Shown here: piece by piece, positions 2,841-25,322 of the stretch
How the letters are laid out: each line of letters opens with the position of its first letter
How positions within the stretch are numbered: position 1 is the stretch's first letter
NCBI GenBank assembly: GCA_944324475.1
Contig: CALUWK010000008.1
Coordinates: forward strand, 1 to 53,792
Direction of reading: 5' to 3'
Length of the DNA: 53,792 nucleotides
DNA from: Candidatus Gastranaerophilales bacterium
GTDB taxonomy: Bacteria > Cyanobacteriota > Vampirovibrionia > Gastranaerophilales > Gastranaerophilaceae
Translations under genes and position numbers: made by a program
Notes under the pieces: generated by a model
Databases searched by the model: none
Told to the model about the DNA's origin: nothing
The model's input: the letters and a program-made list of their open reading frames with translations, nothing else

Positions 2841-3297
2841 AAAAATATTCGAAAAACTAAAAAAATATTATCATTTAAGAATACTTAAACGAAAATACTT
2901 TAGGTACGGCAAATGTCGTATGTGTGGTGGTTGTTGCGAAAATATTTATATAAAACACAAAAACAAAACTATAAAAACAAAAGAAGAATTCGAAAAAATT
3001 AAACAAAAAGATAACTACTCATTTTATCAGCACATAACTCCCATAAGCAAAGATGAATTTGGCTTAATTTTTGCTTGTGATAAATTTGATAAAGAAAAGA
3101 AATTATGCAAAGAACATAAAAAAAGACCATCGATTTGTAAAAATTACCCTTCAGAAGAAATCTTCAAAATGGGCGCACAACTAAAAGACAACTGCGGATA
3201 TTACTTTGAACCAATAGAAAAATTTAGCGAAGTTTTTAAAAAAACTTTAAAAAAGCCAATAAAAAATTTCAGCAATCCAGAAGAAAACAAATACTAA
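2827..3297 (+). CDS. YkgJ family cysteine-cluster protein
   Basis: Belongs to the YkgJ/UPF0153 CxxCxxCC proteins, thought to bind zinc or an iron-sulfur cluster. Seen: CRMCGGCC (C30, C33, C36, C37), then C84, C94 and C104 in a KRPSICKNYP context, and C123, which is the usual eight-cysteine set for the family. A basic N-terminal helix of about 28 residues precedes it. Start ATG lies inside the end of the previous gene. Its stop overlaps the convergent folP stop by 4 bases. Biochemical function is unknown for the family. Confidence 0.8.
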   Translation: MILHKKIFEKLKKYYHLRILKRKYFRYGKCRMCGGCCENIYIKHKNKTIKTKEEFEKIKQKDNYSFYQHITPISKDEFGLIFACDKFDKEKKLCKEHKKRPSICKNYPSEEIFKMGAQLKDNCGYYFEPIEKFSEVFKKTLKKPIKNFSNPEENKY

Positions 3298-4445
3298 AAG
3301 AGTCTTTGATGTAGCTTAAGAGCCTGAGATGTCAATTCAACGTTATGAACTCTAATATAATCAACATCATTTTGCATTAAATAAAAAGCACTTAAAGCAG
3401 AAACAAAATCAGCATCTTTCGGTTCTTTTGTATTAATAACATCCCGCATAAAACGTTTTCTTGATACACCTGCCAAAAGAGGAAAACCCATAGATTTAAA
3501 CTCATTAATTCTTTTTAATAATTCAAAATTTTGACTTAAACTTTTTGCAAATCCAAATCCAACATCAATTATCACATCCTTCTTATTCAACCCCGCTTGA
3601 ATTGCAAGTTGAACCTTACTATAAATTTCAGAAAATACTTCATCAACAACATTATCATAATAAGTAAGATTATCCATTGTTTTCGCATCACCCCTCGAGT
3701 GCATGATAACAAGTTTTTTTCTTTCTTTAGCACAAATTTTTGCAAATTCAATATTTGATAAAAAACTAACATCATTAATTATGTCGGCACCTGCCTCAAT
3801 AGCAGCTTTTGCACAAGCAAGAGTCATAGTATCCACACTTATTTCTATATAAGGAAATGCAGTCTTAAGGGCCGTAACGACAGGAACAACTTTTTCTATT
3901 TCATATACAACAGAAACCAAATCAGAATAAGGCTTTGTAGATTGTGCGCCAATATCGATTATGTCGGCACCAGCTTCTATCATATCAATAGCATGATTTA
4001 TAGCCTTTTCAATTTCAACAAATTCCCCTCCGTCCGAAAAAGAATTTGGAGTCATATTTAAAATCCCCATTATTCTTGTCTTAGATTTCTCGGATAATTC
4101 TAGTTCAATTTTTTCAAAAATAACATCAGACAACTTGGATAGTGAAAAAGGTTGAGAAGCCAATTTTTTAGCAACTAAAGTCAGTTGAGCAATGGTTCCT
4201 GACAAAATACAATCTGAAAAACTAACCGAACAATCAATAACACCCCTATTTACTGCACAATCACAATCACAAGAAAGCGCAGTTTGCTTAATAATAGACG
4301 CCTGGGAAGGAGTAACATCAAAAATTTTAACCGAAAAAAACAAATGTTTTTCTATAGCCTGCTCAATATAACCTTCATCGAACCCAACTGATGAAATTTC
4401 CTCTTTTATAAATTTTTTTAAAACAGTCTTTGATAAAAATTGCAT
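3294..4445 (-). CDS. folP: Dihydropteroate synthase with N-terminal extension
   Basis: Condenses 6-hydroxymethyl-dihydropterin diphosphate with p-aminobenzoate in folate synthesis; folK for the preceding step is at 31.9 kb. The TIM-barrel domain begins near residue 125 with MGILNMTPNSFSDGG. Key residues known from E. coli FolP are present: the Asn of that motif, Asp in IIDIG, Asn in IINDVS, Asp in IIDVGFGF, Lys in SRKRF, Arg and His in RVHNV. Several usually fixed neighbours differ: GGESTRP is GAQSTKP, and DPGFGFGK is DVGFGFAK. The 125-residue N-terminal domain, with a CDCDC cluster, is not in E. coli FolP. ATG at 4445 is chosen; an in-frame TTG at 4460 is possible, and neither has a clear ribosome binding site. 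Confidence 0.9.
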   Translation of the reverse strand: MQFLSKTVLKKFIKEEISSVGFDEGYIEQAIEKHLFFSVKIFDVTPSQASIIKQTALSCDCDCAVNRGVIDCSVSFSDCILSGTIAQLTLVAKKLASQPFSLSKLSDVIFEKIELELSEKSKTRIMGILNMTPNSFSDGGEFVEIEKAINHAIDMIEAGADIIDIGAQSTKPYSDLVSVVYEIEKVVPVVTALKTAFPYIEISVDTMTLACAKAAIEAGADIINDVSFLSNIEFAKICAKERKKLVIMHSRGDAKTMDNLTYYDNVVDEVFSEIYSKVQLAIQAGLNKKDVIIDVGFGFAKSLSQNFELLKRINEFKSMGFPLLAGVSRKRFMRDVINTKEPKDADFVSALSAFYLMQNDVDYIRVHNVELTSQALKLHQRLF

Positions 4446-13873: not shown

Positions 13874-13918
13874 GAAATTAAACAATCTATATATACTTTA
13901 TATATATGTGAACTATAT
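13874..13918 (+). promoter_or_regulatory. Divergent copy of the shared leader motif, upstream of paralogue 1
   Basis: TTTAT (13897-13901), five bases, then TGTGAACTATAT. This resembles the TTTAT-N5-TGTAGGGA motif at three downstream genes but lacks the GGG. GAAATT lies 17 bases upstream of TTTAT. The motif is about 50 bases before the start codon, as in the other copies. Confidence 0.35.
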
Positions 13919-13959: not shown

Positions 13960-14430
13960 ATGGGCTGGGTAACTCTAACCTTAAGAAAATTAACCTTGAG
14001 AAGCGAAGTAAACAGTCTTGAACTTCGCGATTTGCAAATGTCCCGACAAATTCGAGGCATACAGAGAAATTTGTCCTACGAACAATCGGTTTACAATAAA
14101 CTAAAAACACAAGAATTGAATGAAGCAAAAAAAACATATTTAGAAATAAGAGATGGAGAAAGACCATCGGTAAGCTCAAGTGAATATGCAGAATGGCAAT
14201 TAAAATATTCAGCAGCAAACGAAGATTATCAAGATCAAAAACAAAACATTAATAACTACTATGATGACATATTAAATGAGCTTGAAGAAGCTGCAACAGA
14301 TGAAGAAACAAGAATTCAAGAAGAACAAACAACCGTAGAAGCGCAACTCGAAGCAATGAGATCCGAAATGGAAAGCGTCGGAGAACAGATAAGTTCAGAC
14401 ATTGAAAGTTCTAAACTAAACTTAAAATAA
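13960..14430 (+). CDS. MGW-family coiled-coil protein, paralogue 1
   Basis: First of three genes here whose products start with the identical decapeptide MGWVTLTLRK. After it come ELRDLQMSRQIRGIQR (about 21-36, matching LRDLQISREKRQLAR in the others), a variable middle of about 70 residues, and an acidic helical C-terminus. The latter contains EEAATDEETRIQEEQTTVEAQLEAM and ends in SSDIESSKLNLK. No signal peptide, membrane helix or cysteine. Heptad-like spacing suggests coiled coils. No named family is recognised. GAGG lies 8 bases before the ATG. It converges directly on the next gene with no terminator. Membership of the family is clear; function is unknown. Confidence 0.8.
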   Translation: MGWVTLTLRKLTLRSEVNSLELRDLQMSRQIRGIQRNLSYEQSVYNKLKTQELNEAKKTYLEIRDGERPSVSSSEYAEWQLKYSAANEDYQDQKQNINNYYDDILNELEEAATDEETRIQEEQTTVEAQLEAMRSEMESVGEQISSDIESSKLNLK

Positions 14431-14949
14431 TTAACCAATAAAACACTTATAAGCGTTTAAAACTTTATCAGCTTCCTTTATCAAAGTTAAATAATCAGAA
14501 TTATTATATACAGTTATATCAAACTTGGAATAATTATCTAAATCAACTTCAGTAATATCATTATTATTAACAATAACTCCACGCCTAGATCTATTATGAT
14601 AATCAGATTCTACTCTAATTAAAAATGCACCCGCCTTTTTAAAAAAATCAGCTTCATATCTAAGCCTTATATCAGGAACAATTATTTTATCATAACCCAA
14701 TAATTTATTAATCCAATAATTCTTATCAATATTTCTGCCCCAATTTCCAAGCTCAATCAGGTCATTTCTGTATAAATGCTTATTTTTTAGAATTTCATCA
14801 AAAGCAATGTTTTTTCTTTTGGAATATTCTAATTTTATAGCATCACCTAGACCAACTCTTCTATAATCAACAAGTTTACTTAAAAGGATTTTAGCAAGGG
14901 TGTCCTTACCACTATATTGCTTTCCAGAAATTACCAATATATGTTTCAT
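14431..14949 (-). CDS. Phosphomevalonate kinase-like (animal-type fold) P-loop kinase
   Basis: The order of motifs resembles the animal-type phosphomevalonate kinase family: ISGKQYSGKDTLA (P-loop, residues 7-19), a GDAIKLEYSK segment, RNDLIELGNWGRNIDKNYW, VPDIRLRYEADFF, and a DNYSKFDITVYNN end. That enzyme makes mevalonate diphosphate in animals. In bacteria the same NMP-kinase-like fold also occurs in phage-type deoxynucleotide monophosphate kinases, so the substrate is open. No other mevalonate gene is in the window. ATG at 14949 aligns with family N-termini; an upstream ATG at 14982 would add 11 residues. It lies between two MGW-family genes on the opposite strand. Confidence 0.7.
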   Translation of the reverse strand: MKHILVISGKQYSGKDTLAKILLSKLVDYRRVGLGDAIKLEYSKRKNIAFDEILKNKHLYRNDLIELGNWGRNIDKNYWINKLLGYDKIIVPDIRLRYEADFFKKAGAFLIRVESDYHNRSRRGVIVNNNDITEVDLDNYSKFDITVYNNSDYLTLIKEADKVLNAYKCFIG

Positions 14950-15022
14950 AGTTGAATTATAGAAAAAAAATATAGCAGGCATAATATATATTAAAAAATA
15001 TTAAGTAAATTTTAAATTTTTA

Positions 15023-15067
15023 TCAATTTATCTTAAAAAAACAACTTTATATTCATGTAGGGAATAT
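15023..15067 (+). promoter_or_regulatory. Shared leader/promoter motif, copy A
   Basis: TTTAT (15046-15050), five bases, TGTAGGGAATAT (15056-15067). TCAATT lies 17 bases upstream of TTTAT, at the same distance as GCAATT and GCAATA in copies B and C. ACACACAAATT follows, also found after copy B. The motif is 44 bases before the 15100 start codon. Confidence 0.5.
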
Positions 15068-15099
15068 GTCACACACAAATTAGGGGGTATTGTATATTT

Positions 15100-15351
15100 A
15101 TGGGATTGCAAAGGAATGGCAATCGCAAAAAAAGCGATTGTAAAAGAAATGTTGTCTCTAGATTGCTTGAACTAACACATTCAAGGAATTTTAGAAAATT
15201 TGAGACATTGTATGAAATTATTGGCACGAAAAACGAAAACAACGATACAAAAAATCGTTATTTAGAAGACGAGCTTAATTTGTACAAAGAAGAAATTTTG
15301 TTTGACTTTAGCCTTTTAAGCAAAAAAAGTGCGATTATTTCATTGTGCTAA
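15100..15351 (+). CDS. Small protein of unknown function, or structured RNA
   Basis: An 83-residue frame with a basic N-terminus (MGLQRNGNRKKSD) and a more hydrophobic end. It is preceded by the same leader motif as the MGW-family genes and by AGGGGG about 12 bases before the ATG. It does not start with the family decapeptide. Two hairpins with 7-base loops lie inside it (15120-15140 and 15241-15259), which is unusual for coding DNA, so the transcript may be mainly a structured RNA. The product is unlike anything I recognise. Confidence 0.35.
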   Translation: MGLQRNGNRKKSDCKRNVVSRLLELTHSRNFRKFETLYEIIGTKNENNDTKNRYLEDELNLYKEEILFDFSLLSKKSAIISLC

Positions 15352-15512
15352 ATTAACAAAAATAATAAAATGAACTAATAAAGCAAAATCTCTTTCATTT
15401 TGCCGTTTTGCAATTTGTCGGCAAACAGCCTTTTTAAAGAGTCTTTGTTAAGTTTTGTAACGCAAAAAATTTAAAAGAAGCAATTTTTTAAAACAAAAAT
15501 TGTTTATTAAAG
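15352..15512 (+). other. Structured non-coding region between small ORF and paralogue 2
   Basis: Several inverted repeats follow each other: GCAAAAT/ATTTTGC with a 7-base loop (15383-15403); TTTGCCG/CGGCAAA (15399-15425), which shares bases with the former so the two exclude each other; TTTTG/CAAAA near 15453-15467; and CAATTTTT/AAAAATTG (15481-15502). The mutually exclusive pair followed by TTTTT could be a switchable terminator, but the T-run is short. No open frame is supported here. Confidence 0.35.
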
Positions 15513-15525
15513 TGTAGGGAATTTT
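15480..15525 (+). promoter_or_regulatory. Shared leader/promoter motif, copy B
   Basis: GCAATT (15480-15485), 17 bases, TTTAT (15503-15507), five bases, TGTAGGGAATTTT (15513-15525). It lies 94 bases before paralogue 2. ACACACAAATT follows downstream as in copy A. Confidence 0.5.
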
Positions 15526-15606
15526 AAATTAAGTTTATCTTACACACAAATTTTCCGTTACACGATTTTACACGAGAACAATTTAAAGGGAGAAAGAGGT
15601 TTTACT

Positions 15607-16140
15607 ATGGGATGGGTTACACTTACATTAAGAAAAAGGGAGCTTAAACAATCTCACGCCTATTATCAATTAAGAGATTTACAAATTTCGCGTGAAAAAA
15701 GACAACTAGCAAGACAAAAGCAATATCAAACAGCATCTGTTCAATATGAACAAGAACAAAGACTTGCACCAATTAAAGACAATTACAGAGTAAACAGACA
15801 AAGCATTATGGATCAAATTTCAGCGTTAAGAGAAGAAGAAAAGAACGCTGGCATAGATGAAAACGGACAAAAAGTCACTGACAATAGCGGACAAATAAGT
15901 GATTTACAATTACAACTATCAAATCTTCAATTAGAATACACTGAAGATGTTAACAATGAAAAAACATTCTTCGAAGATGAACTTGCAATGATAGAAGAAG
16001 AAGCAAGTGATCAAGAAACGCAACTTGATATGGAACAAACAGAAGTAGAAGCACAAATGGAAGCAATAAGTCAAGAAATACAATCAGTAAGCGAAGCAGT
16101 AAGTACTGAAATACAAAATTCTACAATAAAATTAGCTTAA
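15607..16140 (+). CDS. MGW-family coiled-coil protein, paralogue 2
   Basis: 177 residues. Begins MGWVTLTLRKRELKQSH, then QLRDLQISREKRQLARQK (about 21-38), a Gln-rich helical middle, and an acidic C-terminus with NNEKTFFEDELAMIEEEASD, MEQTEVEAQMEAISQEIQSV and the final STIKLA. Nearly the same C-terminus is present in paralogue 3. No signal peptide, cysteine or membrane segment. GAGG precedes the ATG by 7 bases in a purine-rich leader (GGGAGAAAGAGG), which is also conserved before paralogue 3. A strong intrinsic terminator follows at 16181. This leader-gene-terminator layout suggests a monocistronic, well-expressed gene. Function is unknown. Confidence 0.85.
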   Translation: MGWVTLTLRKRELKQSHAYYQLRDLQISREKRQLARQKQYQTASVQYEQEQRLAPIKDNYRVNRQSIMDQISALREEEKNAGIDENGQKVTDNSGQISDLQLQLSNLQLEYTEDVNNEKTFFEDELAMIEEEASDQETQLDMEQTEVEAQMEAISQEIQSVSEAVSTEIQNSTIKLA

Positions 16141-16180
16141 AAAATAACTAAGTAAAACCAAATAATAATAGTGTAACTTA

Positions 16181-16206
16181 AAGTGCCAAAATTGGCACTT
16201 TTTTAT
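16181..16206 (+). terminator. Intrinsic terminator after paralogue 2
   Basis: Perfect palindrome AAGTGCCAAAATTGGCACTT (16181-16200) followed by TTTTTA. It overlaps the end of the convergent gene and may work in one direction only. Confidence 0.8.
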
Positions 16207-17567
16207 TTTTTAATTTGTTCTTTCAACTTATACGCAGCAGTTAAAATAGGATCTATTGAACTTGAATAAGGTGGAGCATAAGCTAAATCTAAATGCAACA
16301 ACTCATCTACAGTTAACCTTGCTTTCAGGGCAGATGTTATTGTATTAATTCTTTGAGCCACATTTCCGACACATCCTATACTTTGTGCGCCCAAAATTTC
16401 ACCGCTTCTTTTATCGGCAACAATTTTTAAAGTCACTTCATTTGATGATGGCATATAGCTTGCCTTATCTTTTTTTGTAATAGTAGCACTTATCGGTTCA
16501 AGATTAACCTTTTTTGAGTACTCAAAAGCATCTTGCAATGTTAATCCTGTCTTTGAGATTGTATAATCAAAAAAACGAGTTATAACAGAACTTAATATTC
16601 CGTCAAAAACTTCAAAATCCTTGCTGCAAGTTGCATTAATTGCAGCAACCCTGCCTTCTTTATTGGCTATAGTTCCTAAACCCAAATAAGCTGGTTCTCT
16701 TGTAACTATATCATACTTTTGAGTGCAGTCACCGCAGGCAAAAATATTTTTTATATTTGTCCTCATTCTGTTATCTACTTGAATAGCACCAGTTACTCCA
16801 AGTTTTATACCTGCTTTTTTTGCAATATCAACATTGGCAGAAGCACCTGTCGCTAAAACACAAAAATCAGCGAAAAACTCTTTATTAGATTCCATAATTA
16901 TACTCTTGAAATTATTTTCACTGTCGACAGTAATTTTTACAGCTCTTTCATTATAAAAAGTCTGCAATTTTGAATTACACTTTGAAATTATTGCATCTTG
17001 AATCAATTTTGAAAAATCTTCATCAAAATCAGATGCAATACGATTTTTTGCTTCTATAATTATAACTTCGAGCCCATTTTTTATAAAAGCTTCTGCTAAT
17101 TCAATACCAATATAACCTGCACCAAGCAAGATAACTGATTTTGAATTTAACATCTTTTCCCTTATTTTTACACCCGATTCAAGACTTCTCAATGTAAAAA
17201 CATTATTAGCAGATATATTTTCAATCTTGGGTATATTAACATCTGCTCCTAATGCTAAAATTAATTCATCGTAAAAAATATGATTACCATTTATTAACAC
17301 ACAATTCTGTTCCGGATATATCTCTTCCAGTTTATGATTTAAGAAGACTGGTATTCCCATATTTAAAAAATCTTGAGGAGTCCTTATAATCAATTTATTT
17401 ATATCATCAACAGAACCTTCAATATAATATGGCAAACCACATAAAGAAATAGCAATATTGTCATCTCTTGTATATAGCTCAACATGATTTTCAGGGTTCA
17501 ATCTTTTTGATTTGGAAGCAGCCTTAGCACCCGCAGCACCTCCGCCTATAATTACAATTTTTTTCAT
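16203..17567 (-). CDS. CoA-disulfide reductase / NADH oxidase-like flavoprotein
   Basis: FAD- and NAD(P)H-dependent enzyme of the CoADR/NOX/Npx group. Seen: the FAD-binding IIGGGAAGAKAA at the N-terminus, the redox-active cysteine in ISLCGLPYY at residue 43 (the family position), a second Rossmann motif GAGYIGIELAEAF near 155, and the FAD-binding IFACGDC. The C-terminal dimerisation domain carries LDLAYAPPYSSSIDP. Members reduce CoA disulfide, O2 or peroxide, so a role in thiol or oxygen defence fits a strict or microaerophilic gut organism. ATG at 17567 is preferred over a TTG at 17585. It is divergent from rsmD. Confidence 0.88.
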   Translation of the reverse strand: MKKIVIIGGGAAGAKAASKSKRLNPENHVELYTRDDNIAISLCGLPYYIEGSVDDINKLIIRTPQDFLNMGIPVFLNHKLEEIYPEQNCVLINGNHIFYDELILALGADVNIPKIENISANNVFTLRSLESGVKIREKMLNSKSVILLGAGYIGIELAEAFIKNGLEVIIIEAKNRIASDFDEDFSKLIQDAIISKCNSKLQTFYNERAVKITVDSENNFKSIIMESNKEFFADFCVLATGASANVDIAKKAGIKLGVTGAIQVDNRMRTNIKNIFACGDCTQKYDIVTREPAYLGLGTIANKEGRVAAINATCSKDFEVFDGILSSVITRFFDYTISKTGLTLQDAFEYSKKVNLEPISATITKKDKASYMPSSNEVTLKIVADKRSGEILGAQSIGCVGNVAQRINTITSALKARLTVDELLHLDLAYAPPYSSSIDPILTAAYKLKEQIKK

Positions 17568-17599
17568 GATAAATTTATGATACAAAAAGGAGAGAAAAA

Positions 17600-18136
17600 T
17601 TGTATCTGACAGGTGGACAATATAAAGGTACCAAAATTAATGTAAAAAATAACATAAAACCAACTTTATCAAAAGTTAGACAAAGCGTTTTTAACATAAT
17701 TATGCCATATTGTAATGAAGGAGATTTTTTTCTTGATATGTTCGCAGGAAGCGGAATTATGGGTCTCGAAGCACTATCTAGAGGTTTTAGAGTAAAAGAA
17801 ATTGAAATAAACGCTAAAAATGGAGATTTAATCAAAGAAAATTATACAAAAATTAAACAAAAACCTAATTTAACAATAACTGATGCCCTTTTATATAAAA
17901 CAAACGAAAAATATCAAATTATATACATAGATCCACCTTGGCAAAAAGACTATTCTCCAATAATAAAAAAAGCCCATGAACTGCTAAACAAAGACGGTAT
18001 TATAATAATTGAATATGATTGCACAAATAAAATAGACACCAAAAAAATTATAACCGAAAACAATTTGACTCTTAATAGCTTTAAATCCAAGAAATACGGA
18101 AGAGTTTGTCTTGAATTATTAAGTTTTGTAAACTAA
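17600..18136 (+). CDS. rsmD: 16S rRNA (guanine966-N2)-methyltransferase
   Basis: Methylates G966 of 16S rRNA with SAM. Family marks: KPTLSKVRQSVFNI (about 21-34), SAM-binding FLDMFAGSGIMGLEALSRG, and the catalytic IDPPW (near 113-117) of the N6/N2 type. The length of 178 is normal. The start is TTG with AAGGAG 7 bases upstream; no ATG near it would keep the N-terminal pattern. Confidence 0.9.
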   Translation: MYLTGGQYKGTKINVKNNIKPTLSKVRQSVFNIIMPYCNEGDFFLDMFAGSGIMGLEALSRGFRVKEIEINAKNGDLIKENYTKIKQKPNLTITDALLYKTNEKYQIIYIDPPWQKDYSPIIKKAHELLNKDGIIIIEYDCTNKIDTKKIITENNLTLNSFKSKKYGRVCLELLSFVN

Positions 18137-18149
18137 ATAAAATAAAATA

Positions 18150-18194
18150 GCAATAATTAAATAACAAAAAACTTTATTACAATGTAGGGATATT
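18150..18194 (+). promoter_or_regulatory. Shared leader/promoter motif, copy C
   Basis: GCAATA (18150-18155), 17 bases, TTTAT (18173-18177), five bases, TGTAGGGATATTT (18183-18195), 48 bases before paralogue 3. The AGAGAGAAAGAGG ribosome-binding leader that follows is close to that of paralogue 2. Confidence 0.5.
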
Positions 18195-18230
18195 TAATTA
18201 CACGTATCAAAGAGAGAAAGAGGTACTATT

Positions 18231-19076
18231 ATGGGGTGGGTAACACTTACATTGAGAAAAAGAGTTTTAAAACAGTCTCATGCCGAGTACCAAATGCGTG
18301 ATTTACAAATTTCACGTGAAAAGAGGCAACTGGCAAGAAGAAAACAGCAAGAGACTGCATCTATTCAATTAGAACAAAAAATGGCGCTTGCACCGTTAAA
18401 ACAAACGTACAATGAAACCATTGACGAACTTGAAAACAAAAGAAAAGAACTATCGAACTATTTAAGAATTGCGCAAGAATACGCAAATGGTAATTCTTCA
18501 GGCGATATAGCAATTTCAGGAAATATAGCAACCGTAAGAAATGATTTAAGCGGACAATATGCAGGCACAGCAAATGGACCATTTGTACTTACAATGAACA
18601 ATGGAACATCTAGAAATATAAAATTTGAAGAATTACAAGCAGACCAAACAGGAGAAAAAGTTTGGTATGAAGATGCAAACAAAAAGAAATATTATGAAAC
18701 ATCTGTTAACGACCTAGCCAGATACGATATATATGACTTTACAGAAATAATGTCAGAGTTCAACTTACCAGATATTTCATCAATAAATCAAGATAGCATC
18801 TCATCACTAGAAACACAAATTAATTCTGAAATATCAAATATTCAACTCGAGAAAGAAAACGCACAACTCGAATACACAGAAAACGTAAATAGCGAAAAAA
18901 CATTCTATGAAGATGAGCTTGCAATGCTTGAAGAAGATGTTAACGACGAAGAAACAATGCTCGATCTTGAACAATCAGATGTTGAATCACAAATGGAAGC
19001 AATAAGCCAAGAACTCCAGTCAGTAGGTGAAGCAGTAAGCTCTCAAATACAGAGTTCAACAATAAAATTGGCATAA
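18231..19076 (+). CDS. MGW-family coiled-coil protein, paralogue 3, with inserted middle domain
   Basis: 281 residues. N-terminus MGWVTLTLRKRVLKQSH and MRDLQISREKRQLARRK match paralogue 2. The C-terminus (about 205-281, with NSEKTFYEDELAMLEEDVND, SQMEAISQELQSV and final STIKLA) also matches. Between them is a segment of about 100 residues (roughly 82-180) absent from paralogue 2. It contains GNSSGDIAISGNIATVRNDL and KVWYEDANKKKYYET, looks beta-rich, and is likely a separate small domain. No signal peptide or cysteine. GAGG is 8 bases before the ATG, and a bidirectional terminator follows. Function is unknown; the layout suggests a scaffold whose middle part varies. Confidence 0.85.
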   Translation: MGWVTLTLRKRVLKQSHAEYQMRDLQISREKRQLARRKQQETASIQLEQKMALAPLKQTYNETIDELENKRKELSNYLRIAQEYANGNSSGDIAISGNIATVRNDLSGQYAGTANGPFVLTMNNGTSRNIKFEELQADQTGEKVWYEDANKKKYYETSVNDLARYDIYDFTEIMSEFNLPDISSINQDSISSLETQINSEISNIQLEKENAQLEYTENVNSEKTFYEDELAMLEEDVNDEETMLDLEQSDVESQMEAISQELQSVGEAVSSQIQSSTIKLA

Positions 19077-19125
19077 AATAAATTTATCTCAACTCTCTTT
19101 TAATTCATAAAACGTGTAAAAACAA

Positions 19126-19147
19126 GGCGGGATTTCCCGCCTTTTTT
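19126..19147. terminator. Bidirectional intrinsic terminator after paralogue 3
   Basis: GGCGGG-ATTT-CCCGCC (19126-19141) followed by TTTTTT, with an A-rich stretch on the other side, so it can serve both converging genes. It is one of the most GC-rich stems in the window. Confidence 0.85.
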
Positions 19148-19684
19148 CTATTTAAAAACCTTGTCGTCAGTATCAGTAGAACTTGTAGCATCATTAGAAG
19201 TATTTGTTTCGTAAAACATAGACATTTTTGTAGGATCAATTTTAGGGTATTTTTCCTTTACCTCTTTAATTTCTTCATTTATCCTATATGCATTTATCTC
19301 ACTTTGAGTCACTCTGCCGTCATGATTTGTGTCAATCTCATTAAAATTGGACAAAACAGTATCCAAAAGACTGGACATACTACCATTACTCGCACAAAGT
19401 TGAGATAATTCACTATAAGTCATACCTTGTGTTTGAAGCTTAGCAGTATAGCCACTTATATCTTCTTGGGAAATTGTACCATCGCCATCAATATCAATTT
19501 GGTTAAAATTATTCATCATATAACTTCTAAAAGATTGATTTACAGTATATTTAACATTCTCAGACGATGGATTTAAGAGATTATCCAAAGTTAAACCAGT
19601 ACCACCATTTAACATAAGCAAGTAATTAGAATTTAAACCAGAAATTGCGCCAGTGAACAAACTACTTCCTAATAATTTAGCCAT
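19148..19684 (-). CDS. EF-hand calcium-binding protein
   Basis: 178 residues with two canonical 12-residue EF-hand loops: DIDGDGTISQED (64-75) and DTNHDGRVTQSE (118-129). Each has acidic or Asn/Ser/Thr ligands at 1, 3, 5, 7 and 9 and Glu/Asp at 12. The N-terminal 40 residues are Gly/Leu/Asn-rich (GLNSNYLLMLNGGTG) without a charged signal-peptide start. The C-terminal tail is Ser/Thr/Asp-rich. It probably binds Ca2+; the target is unknown. It converges on MGW paralogue 3 through a shared terminator. Confidence 0.8.
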   Translation of the reverse strand: MAKLLGSSLFTGAISGLNSNYLLMLNGGTGLTLDNLLNPSSENVKYTVNQSFRSYMMNNFNQIDIDGDGTISQEDISGYTAKLQTQGMTYSELSQLCASNGSMSSLLDTVLSNFNEIDTNHDGRVTQSEINAYRINEEIKEVKEKYPKIDPTKMSMFYETNTSNDATSSTDTDDKVFK

Positions 19685-23189: not shown

Positions 23190-23447
23190 TTATTTACAAA
23201 TACTTGTGATAAATGAAACAACATCAAAAAAACTTTCCTTGATAAAATCTCTGGCTAAAGTTTTTAAAGATGTTTTTTCAATAGCATCAAATGCATAATT
23301 AATAGGATCATCCGTAGCTTTAAATTTTGAAAGAATATTTTTTTCATCAATTTCGTTTAAATTAAACATAAGTTCCTCTTTTGAAATTCTCTCATCAAAA
23401 GGGTTTTGCATTTTACTTGTCATTTCAAAATTTCTTCTTTTGGACAT
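23190..23447 (-). CDS. Small protein of unknown function (85 aa)
   Basis: Hydrophilic and helical, starting MSKRRNFEMTSKMQNPFDER with acidic and Asn-rich middle parts. No membrane helix or signal peptide. GAGAGAG is about 10 bases before the ATG, and a good terminator follows, which supports a real gene. Divergent from the sigma factor cassette. No family recognised. Confidence 0.55.
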   Translation of the reverse strand: MSKRRNFEMTSKMQNPFDERISKEELMFNLNEIDEKNILSKFKATDDPINYAFDAIEKTSLKTLARDFIKESFFDVVSFITSICK

Positions 23448-23663
23448 TTTTATTAATCTCTCTCTTGATTTTTATTTGTTTTATATATAAATAAAGTATT
23501 TTTTAAATATAAAATTGCTACTTTTTTTAAATACTTAATATATAAAATTAGAAATAAAGCAAAAAAGCAACTATAGCTTAAAAAATAAATATTACAAAAT
23601 GTAACAAAAAAACTTTGAACAATAAAAATAAAAATTCGTTATAATATATAGAGAGGAAAAAAT
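23448..23663. promoter_or_regulatory. AT-rich divergent intergenic region; candidate promoter for the sigma cassette
   Basis: A TATAAT (23640-23645) lies 18 bases before the 23664 start, with TTGAAC (23615-23620) at a long 19-base spacer. A palindrome TTACA-AAA-TGTAA occurs near 23592-23604. The rest is AT-rich, with an imperfect repeat of AAGTATTT/AAATACTT. An autoregulated ECF promoter cannot be recognised with confidence. Confidence 0.35.
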
Positions 23664-24872: not shown

Positions 24873-25256
24873 TTATTTTTTAGCAAAACACTTAATAAAA
24901 TTTGAATTCTTTATTCTATCTAAACACGAACTACAATTTTTACGAACGTTTGTAAAAATATTTTTATCTAAATTAGAAAAATATTTTTCTGCAACACCTT
25001 TTTTGCCTTTTATTAAACTAAAGACAGAAGCAGCGCTTAAAGCAAGTGCGCCAATCAAAATTGAAACCTTGGAAATATTTTCTTTTTGAGTTATATTTTT
25101 CTTCTCTTCATTTATAAAACTATCAAAATCATCTGCCTTATAATACCTTGTATCATATTGATTTCCAGTATTTATGTAGCCCATTAAAGAGCCGCCCATA
25201 CCGAGTAACTTGCGACCGCCAATATCAGCTACAGATTCAATATTATTGTTCACCAT
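24873..25256 (-). CDS. Membrane protein of unknown function (127 aa)
   Basis: Glycine-rich N-terminus (about 12-30, GGRKLLGMGGSLMGYINTG), an acidic/basic linker, one hydrophobic helix at about 65-82 (VSILIGALALSAASVFSLI), and a basic C-terminal part with four cysteines including NCSSC. No signal peptide cleavage site. No family recognised. It converges on the CpxP-like gene with a two-base gap. Confidence 0.5.
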   Translation of the reverse strand: MVNNNIESVADIGGRKLLGMGGSLMGYINTGNQYDTRYYKADDFDSFINEEKKNITQKENISKVSILIGALALSAASVFSLIKGKKGVAEKYFSNLDKNIFTNVRKNCSSCLDRIKNSNFIKCFAKK

Positions 25257-25322
25257 ATTTTAATAAAGTATTATTTTATTAAAAAATTGCCAATATAAAA
25301 GCTTTTTTGTTATAAAAATTAA

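What the first reader, a model, noticed from the sequence alone, without database searches (positions are those of the whole stretch)
13960..19076. Three paralogues sharing the decapeptide MGWVTLTLRK and an acidic coiled-coil C-terminus
Three genes within 5.1 kb (13960, 15607, 18231) encode proteins with the same first ten residues, a shared LRDLQISREKRQLAR-type segment and a conserved C-terminus (EAQMEAISQEIQSV...IKLA), while the middle varies in length. No signal peptide, cysteine or known domain is visible. Two of the three have their own strong terminators and near-identical ribosome-binding leaders, which implies high expression. An exactly conserved N-terminus in otherwise variable proteins suggests an export, assembly or targeting signal. 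They may be building blocks of an undescribed structure. Function is inference.
Basis: partly seen in the sequence, partly recalled or inferred. Interest (0 to 1): 0.7.

Follow-up and report, generated by a model that had tools for sequence, protein, structure and literature searches.

The report
Coiled-hairpin protein family with flagellin-like layout
Three neighbouring genes from an uncultured gut relative of cyanobacteria belong to a large undescribed family of long hairpin-shaped proteins with constant ends and a variable tip, preceded by their own type of promoter, and they may be exported by a second, non-swimming flagellum-like machine found in every genome of this order that was checked.

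Summary
Three ORFs (13960-14430, 15607-16140, 18231-19076, +) share MGWVTLTLRK and a conserved C-terminus. A fourth paralogue lies elsewhere in the genome, beside an OmpR-type regulator gene. The "MGW" family (86 distinct proteins collected) was found only in Gastranaerophilales: all 27 congeners sampled and a few other genera. No Pfam, NCBIfam, PHROG or PDB sequence match.

New here:
(1) AlphaFold2 gives an antiparallel two-helix hairpin (pLDDT 95); the 281-aa paralogue adds a beta domain at the hairpin tip, a layout that aligns end to end with flagellins, at middling scores.
(2) MGW is a distant branch of a larger "MGLSASQ" superfamily with similar ends and a variable middle, present in 57 of 58 relatives, the same 57 that carry type III export genes.
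(3) These genomes hold a second flagellum-type export set (FliF2, FlhA2), kept where flagellin is lost. MGW is kept in such genomes too.
(4) MGW genes share a specific promoter element with an OmpR-type repeat upstream, also found before a few small unknown genes.

Best reading (0.42): signal-less, Cys-poor substrates or axial subunits of the second export system. Export itself is untested.

The parts
13960..14430 (+). MGW paralogue 1 (156 aa), MGWVTLTLRKLTLRSEVNSLELRDLQMSRQ...SSKLNLK
   Evidence: ORF; family match
15607..16140 (+). MGW paralogue 2 (177 aa), predicted two-helix hairpin, helices 2-80 and 94-176
   Evidence: ORF; AlphaFold2 mean pLDDT 94.8
18231..19076 (+). MGW paralogue 3 (281 aa), same hairpin with a beta domain inserted at the tip (strands between residues 93 and 169)
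   Evidence: ORF; AlphaFold2 mean pLDDT 90.6
13874..13910 (+). Promoter-like element of paralogue 1 (GAAAT-N17-CTTTAT-N5-TGTG, 2 mismatches to consensus)
   Evidence: 35.4 bits with a matrix trained on relatives only
15480..15516 (+). Promoter-like element of paralogue 2 (GCAAT-N17-GTTTAT-N5-TGTA)
   Evidence: 57.4 bits
18150..18186 (+). Promoter-like element of paralogue 3 (exact consensus GCAAT-N17-CTTTAT-N5-TGTA)
   Evidence: 52.3 bits
13844..13857 (+). OmpR/RpaB-type direct repeat TAAAGTTTTGTAAA, about 30 nt upstream of the promoter element
15448..15461 (+). OmpR/RpaB-type direct repeat TTAAGTTTTGTAAC, about 32 nt upstream of the promoter element
18119..18132 (+). OmpR/RpaB-type direct repeat TTAAGTTTTGTAAA, about 31 nt upstream of the promoter element (overlaps the end of the preceding ORF)
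16180..16201 (+). Intrinsic terminator after paralogue 2
19124..19143 (+). Intrinsic terminator after paralogue 3
15100..15351 (+). Small conserved ORF (83 aa), unknown, with the same promoter element at 15023-15059; similar ORFs in 6 loci
23190..23447 (-). Small conserved ORF (85 aa), unknown, with the same promoter element at 23482-23518 (-); coordinates derived from the site and the ORF length
24873..25256 (-). ORF of 127 aa with a hydrophobic stretch and no signal-like N-terminus, with the same promoter element at 25254-25290 (-)

Best explanation
The three genes encode paralogous, cysteine-free, signal-less proteins predicted to fold as a long antiparallel coiled hairpin. The conserved N- and C-terminal helices pair and both chain ends meet at one end of the rod; the variable part, in one paralogue a whole beta domain, sits at the opposite tip. 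They are the MGW branch of a larger superfamily found throughout Gastranaerophilales. The most likely function is as substrates of the order's second, flagellum-derived type III export system: the paired ends would serve export and packing in an extracellular filament, needle or cap and would display the variable tip, as flagellin and its relatives do. A dedicated promoter class, probably assisted by an OmpR-type regulator, switches the set on. Shown here: the family, the superfamily link, the predicted fold, the shared promoter element, the second FliF/FlhA set and its retention without flagellin. Inferred: export through that system, polymerisation, and the identity of the regulator.
For: Hairpin fold at pLDDT 94.8 and hairpin plus tip domain at 90.6. 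Paralogue 3 aligns from first to last residue with many flagellins and a hook-filament junction protein over about 200-209 residues, Z 8.1-8.8. Cys 0.22% against 1.34% in other ORFs; 74% of members have no Cys against 15% of size-matched ORFs. MGW and MGLSASQ families share register at both ends, and MGLSASQ ranks first of 28 families in profile comparison. The superfamily is present in the same 57 of 58 genomes as FHIPEP and FliF. A second FliF/FlhA set is retained in genomes without flagellin, and MGW is retained in G010, G027 and G029. MGLSASQ genes lie directly beside the second export operon in G011, beside fliF1 in G005 and beside flagellin in G014. Shared promoter element and OmpR-type repeat, 43 of 62 genes against 15.6 by shuffling.
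Against: MGW genes are not next to export genes. The promoter element was not found at the export operons. Only one genome without export genes was in the comparison, so co-occurrence is weak and confounded with ancestry. Fold-search scores are in the range the tool calls non-specific for helical proteins, and Foldseek gave nothing at E 1e-3 or better. Two MGLSASQ links are to the swimming flagellum, not to the second system. A quarter of members do have a cysteine. No type III signal could be tested.
Confidence: 0.42

Rival explanations
1. Intracellular coiled-coil proteins: a scaffold, cytoskeleton-like layer or stress-response assembly that never leaves the cell.
For: Long acidic coiled coils without signal are common in the cytoplasm; the best fold matches of the bare hairpin are generic intracellular coiled coils; the genes sit singly among housekeeping genes.
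Against: Strong Cys depletion, a beta domain displayed at the tip, variable middle with constant ends, and a superfamily whose distribution matches that of export genes.
Confidence: 0.27
2. Secreted effectors or translocators of the second export system that act on neighbouring cells or on the host, without forming a filament.
For: Several paralogues per genome with variable middles. Other genes with the same promoter element encode signal-less proteins with hydrophobic stretches, such as a 210-aa protein on C12, a 557-aa protein on C18 and, by a weaker site, a 291-aa protein on C1.
Against: Effectors usually conserve only a loose N-terminal signal, whereas here both ends are conserved and pair structurally. 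No enzymatic or toxin domain was found.
Confidence: 0.15
3. FliJ/YscO-like export components: cytoplasmic stalk or chaperone-escort proteins of the export ATPase.
For: FliJ and YscO are two-helix hairpins of similar length (established knowledge); YscO is among the non-significant Foldseek matches (4mh6, E 0.6), and V-ATPase stalk subunits appear for paralogue 3.
Against: No FliJ or YscO Pfam match at E up to 10. Several copies per genome under their own promoters, and members with large inserted domains, do not suit a stalk.
Confidence: 0.08
4. Accessory parts of the ordinary swimming flagellum.
For: Flagellin-like layout; most congeners have flagellin; MGLSASQ genes lie beside fliF1 in G005 and beside flagellin in G014.
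Against: G010 has no flagellin match and a single FliF yet keeps MGW genes; G027 has a single FliF and one flagellin-like gene and keeps several; G029 has no flagellin and keeps two.
Confidence: 0.08

Closest known systems
Flagellin and hook-associated proteins (FliC, FlgL)
   Same: Conserved N- and C-terminal helices that pair, a variable domain between them at the far end, Cys-poor, no signal peptide; end-to-end structural alignment of paralogue 3.
   Different: No Flagellin_N or Flagellin_C match among the reported Pfam hits; own genome has separate true flagellins; shortest members have no domain beyond the hairpin; retained where flagellin is lost.
MGLSASQ superfamily of Gastranaerophilales (undescribed; named here)
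   Same: Same position of the conserved N- and C-terminal residues, variable middle, several genes per genome.
   Different: Different N-terminal decapeptide (MGLSASQ instead of MGWVTL), often a longer middle, present in nearly all relatives, whereas MGW is centred on one genus.
FliJ/YscO export stalk proteins
   Same: Two-helix antiparallel hairpin of similar size.
   Different: No sequence match; multiple paralogues, with inserted domains.
RpaB/HLR1 regulation of cyanobacteria
   Same: Direct repeats upstream of MGW genes (for example TTAAGTTTTGTAAC) resemble published HLR1 sites such as TAACAAAACTTTATAA and TTAAGATATATTACAA (PMC6331805); an OmpR-type regulator gene lies beside MGW4.
   Different: The organism is not photosynthetic; binding is untested; naming the regulator RpaB rests on recollection of its sequence, not on a test.

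Membership tests
Flagellin | Sequence match to Flagellin_N/Flagellin_C | tested here: not met
   Not among Pfam hits at E up to 10 for any of the three proteins; the only flagellar hit was FliD_N at E 5.7
Flagellin | Paired terminal helices with a domain inserted between them | tested here: met
   AlphaFold2 models of paralogues 2 and 3; paralogue 2 has no inserted domain
Flagellin | Same fold as solved flagellins | tested here: inconclusive
   VIA-align Z 8.1-8.8 over about 200-209 residues, 5.9-6.4 A; Foldseek E not significant
Flagellin | Polymerises into a filament | not testable with these tools
   needs protein or cells
Type III export substrate | Export dependent on FlhA/FliPQR | not testable with these tools
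   needs a mutant or a binding assay
Type III export substrate | Occurs only with an export apparatus | tested here: inconclusive
   Superfamily and FHIPEP/FliF in the same 57 of 58 genomes, but only one negative genome
MGLSASQ superfamily | Shared conserved N- and C-terminal ends in register | tested here: met
   Ungapped identity peaks at offset 0 at both ends, with a second N-terminal peak at -7; MGLSASQ profile hits MGW members of other genera at 3.5e-6 to 6.6e-4; first of 28 families
FliJ/YscO | Sequence match to the family | tested here: not met
   Not among Pfam hits at E up to 10
FliJ/YscO | Hairpin fold | tested here: inconclusive
   4mh6 at Foldseek E 0.6 among generic coiled coils
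Phage structural protein | Match to viral families or presence in viral contigs | tested here: not met
   No PHROG better than E 0.075; no relative in viral contigs

The most novel reading that the evidence does not exclude
An order of gut bacteria carries, besides or instead of the swimming flagellum, a second flagellum-derived export machine that builds or secretes an undescribed superfamily of hairpin proteins with constant paired ends and variable tips, MGW being one branch, under a dedicated promoter class and an OmpR-type regulator.
Probability: 0.35. Interest if true: 0.85.

Novelty: new variant of a known kind. Interest (0 to 1): 0.62.

Why it matters
Earlier genome papers read the incomplete flagellar gene sets of these gut relatives of cyanobacteria as partial or lost flagella (PMC4040986, PMC3787301). 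Here an export set with FliF and FlhA is found in all 57 Gastranaerophilales genomes checked, including those without flagellin, and it gains candidate cargo: a large undescribed superfamily with a flagellin-like layout. If true, this would be a new appendage or secretion device in common animal-gut bacteria, with a recognisable promoter by which to find the rest of its gene set.

Tried and rejected
Phage origin: rejected. Known families: Pfam, NCBIfam, PHROGs and PDB sequences gave nothing significant. High expression judged by codon use: not supported for the set. Operon with neighbours: rejected, each gene is its own unit among housekeeping genes, although an EF-hand gene lies convergent to the third gene in many loci. 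My first mismatch search for the promoter had a spacing one base wrong and missed known sites; it was repeated correctly, where the 3-mismatch level is close to chance (239 matches against 153 in the reversed control), so mainly the 0-1 mismatch sites were used. A first HLR1-like pattern found only 25 of 62 MGW genes; a looser half-site pattern, chosen after seeing those results, gave 43 of 62 against 15.6 by shuffling. For paralogue 2, a bare hairpin, structural matches are to many unrelated coiled coils and flagellins are not in the list shown. No paper on a type III secretion system of this order was found in the open-licence library. Structure and fold were predicted for single chains only.
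Full report
WHAT IS THERE. The three ORFs are real and at the stated places. A search of the window's own genome adds a fourth paralogue on contig C43 (MGWITMSLRRSELQ..., 186 aa), directly upstream of an OmpR-type response regulator gene on the same strand. Among 58 genomes of the window's kin, all 27 congeners carry the family, and one other genus has a weak match. A named scan finds it only in records from Gastranaerophilales or unclassified gut MAGs, with names that point to goat, deer and other animal guts, including Candidatus Galligastranaerophilus. Of 127 genomes drawn from the class, 8 match at E up to 1e-6, all in the same family. No viral contig holds a relative. In all, 86 distinct proteins of 135-552 aa were collected, most of 155-190 aa.

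CONSERVATION. In 55 members, M1, W3, L6, R9 and E157 (numbering of paralogue 2) are invariant, with L8, K10, L13, Y111, E148, E152, S166, I169 and L176 nearly so. The decapeptide is therefore a pattern, and the C-terminus is conserved as well. The proteins have 0.22% Cys against 1.34% in other ORFs of the same loci, and 74% lack Cys against 15% of other ORFs of 150-300 aa. The first 40 residues are basic (+4 on average) and the last 60 acidic (-12).

STRUCTURE. AlphaFold2 with family alignments gives paralogue 2 as two helices, 2-80 and 94-176, mean pLDDT 94.8. Paralogue 3 is the same hairpin with a beta domain between the helices, mean pLDDT 90.6. Both chain ends thus meet at one end of the rod and the variable part is at the other. 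Foldseek against the PDB gives nothing at E 1e-3 or better. VIA-align lists many generic coiled coils; for paralogue 3 it also lists a consistent group of flagellins and a hook-filament junction chain aligned over about 200-209 residues from the first to the last residue, Z 8.1-8.8. By the tool's own warning such Z values can mean only a common arrangement, so this is an architectural resemblance, not membership.

LARGER SUPERFAMILY. The own genome also holds proteins that start MGLSASQ...LTARKSDLEYRAQQISQKR and end NIESSFKTFA (contigs C6 and C1). A search with the C6 protein hits 57 of 58 genomes, with several matches per genome, conserved ends and a middle of variable length. Profile comparison of MGW with 28 other families built from the same loci ranks this family first (score 40.5, the next 25.4). 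The MGLSASQ profile picks MGW members of other genera among its best non-member hits (E 3.5e-6 to 6.6e-4). Ungapped identity between the two families peaks at zero offset at the C-terminus (19% against roughly 5-11% at other offsets), and at offsets 0 and -7, one heptad, at the N-terminus (20-21% against roughly 4-12%). I regard common descent as well supported. A short ORF (MSIVTLLARQNLIARKND...) near the flagellar rod genes on C4 looks like another member, by eye only.

EXPORT SYSTEM. FHIPEP (FlhA/SctV) and YscJ/FliF are present in the same 57 genomes and absent in the one genome from outside the order. Most have two FliF proteins. G010, G027, G028, G029, G030, G033 and G047 have one, of the lower-scoring type; of these all but G027 have no flagellin match, and G034 has none either. 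In the own genome the second set is an operon of transglycosylase, FliE, FliF, an unassigned 317-aa protein, FliH and FlhA, separate from the FliF-FliG-FliH-ATPase operon on C17 and from a cluster on C15 that I read as FliP-FliQ-FliR-FlhB-FlhA by size and order. Soo et al. (PMC4040986) and Di Rienzi et al. (PMC3787301) described incomplete sets in this order as partial or lost flagella. Universal retention suggests a function of its own. MGW genes persist in G010, G027 and G029. Superfamily genes lie directly beside the second export operon in G011, beside fliF1 in G005 and beside flagellin in G014. MGW genes themselves do not lie near export genes.

REGULATION. Upstream of MGW genes lies an element GCAAT-N17-CTTTAT-N5-TGTAGGGA, mostly 74-144 nt before the start codon; a strict form is found in 47 of 61 genes of relatives. 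A weight matrix trained on relatives only finds all four own MGW genes and, in 540 kb of own-genome sequence (both strands), 15 sites above 20 bits, against none in a random control of the same size. Those own-genome loci were partly chosen by the motif, so the count is biased, although the scores are not. In relatives most of the non-MGW sites fall before a few small conserved ORFs. About 30 nt further upstream lies a direct repeat resembling the HLR1 sites of RpaB in cyanobacteria (sites listed in PMC6331805): 43 of 62 MGW genes, 15.6 expected by shuffling, 11 of 100 other genes. The pattern for this count was loosened after a first try, so it is exploratory. The element was not found before the export operons, so co-regulation of cargo and machine is not shown.

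MECHANISM. I commit, at 0.42, to the reading that MGW proteins are cargo of the second export system and probably pack through their paired ends into an extracellular structure with variable tips. Shown are the family, the predicted fold, the superfamily, the distribution of export genes and the promoter element; export, polymerisation and regulator binding are inferred. The main rival is an intracellular coiled-coil assembly (0.27). Effectors (0.15), FliJ-like stalk proteins (0.08) and flagellar accessory parts (0.08) follow.

NOVELTY. No family library or paper searched describes the family or a dedicated type III system in this order, with the limit that the paper library holds open-licence papers only. 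Because the layout follows that of known axial proteins, I rate it a new variant of a known kind; it would rise if export through a non-motile system were shown.

Noticed in passing
L186 (own C18, about 32351, -), L175 (own C64:3044, +), L228:3916 (+, genome G011): The same promoter element precedes a putative short RNA with a conserved core AAGACATAAATACCTCCCCCCTACAT and an intrinsic terminator; no Rfam match. Its CCCUACAU is complementary to the AUGUAGGG conserved at the presumed 5' ends of many MGW mRNAs.
   Followed up: partly
L010:3863-4423 and 2956-3702 (own C43): The fourth MGW gene lies directly upstream of an OmpR-type regulator gene; in a relative (L164) an MGW gene is likewise followed by a response regulator gene.
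   Followed up: partly
L051 (own C1:127000-146900) and relatives: A second flagellar-type FliE-FliF-FliH-FlhA operon is kept in genomes that lack flagellin.
   Followed up: partly
L052:9241-10692 (own C1): A 483-aa protein matches only the C-terminal (cytoplasmic) half of FlhA (FHIPEP 321-656, E 2e-46); similar partial matches occur in most relatives.
   Followed up: no
window 19148-19684 (-): An EF-hand protein gene converges on the third MGW gene; it lies in 19 of the 41 loci compared, often in the same place.
   Followed up: no
L213:2634-3266, L215:5846-7519, L198:1565-2440 (own C12, C18, C1): Signal-less proteins with hydrophobic stretches follow the same promoter element (the C1 site is weaker); none has a Pfam match over its cut-off.
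   Followed up: partly
L139, L144, L149: Tandem or repeated MGW copies with the same lengths and near-identical upstream regions in three genomes: recent duplication, unless an assembly artefact.
   Followed up: no
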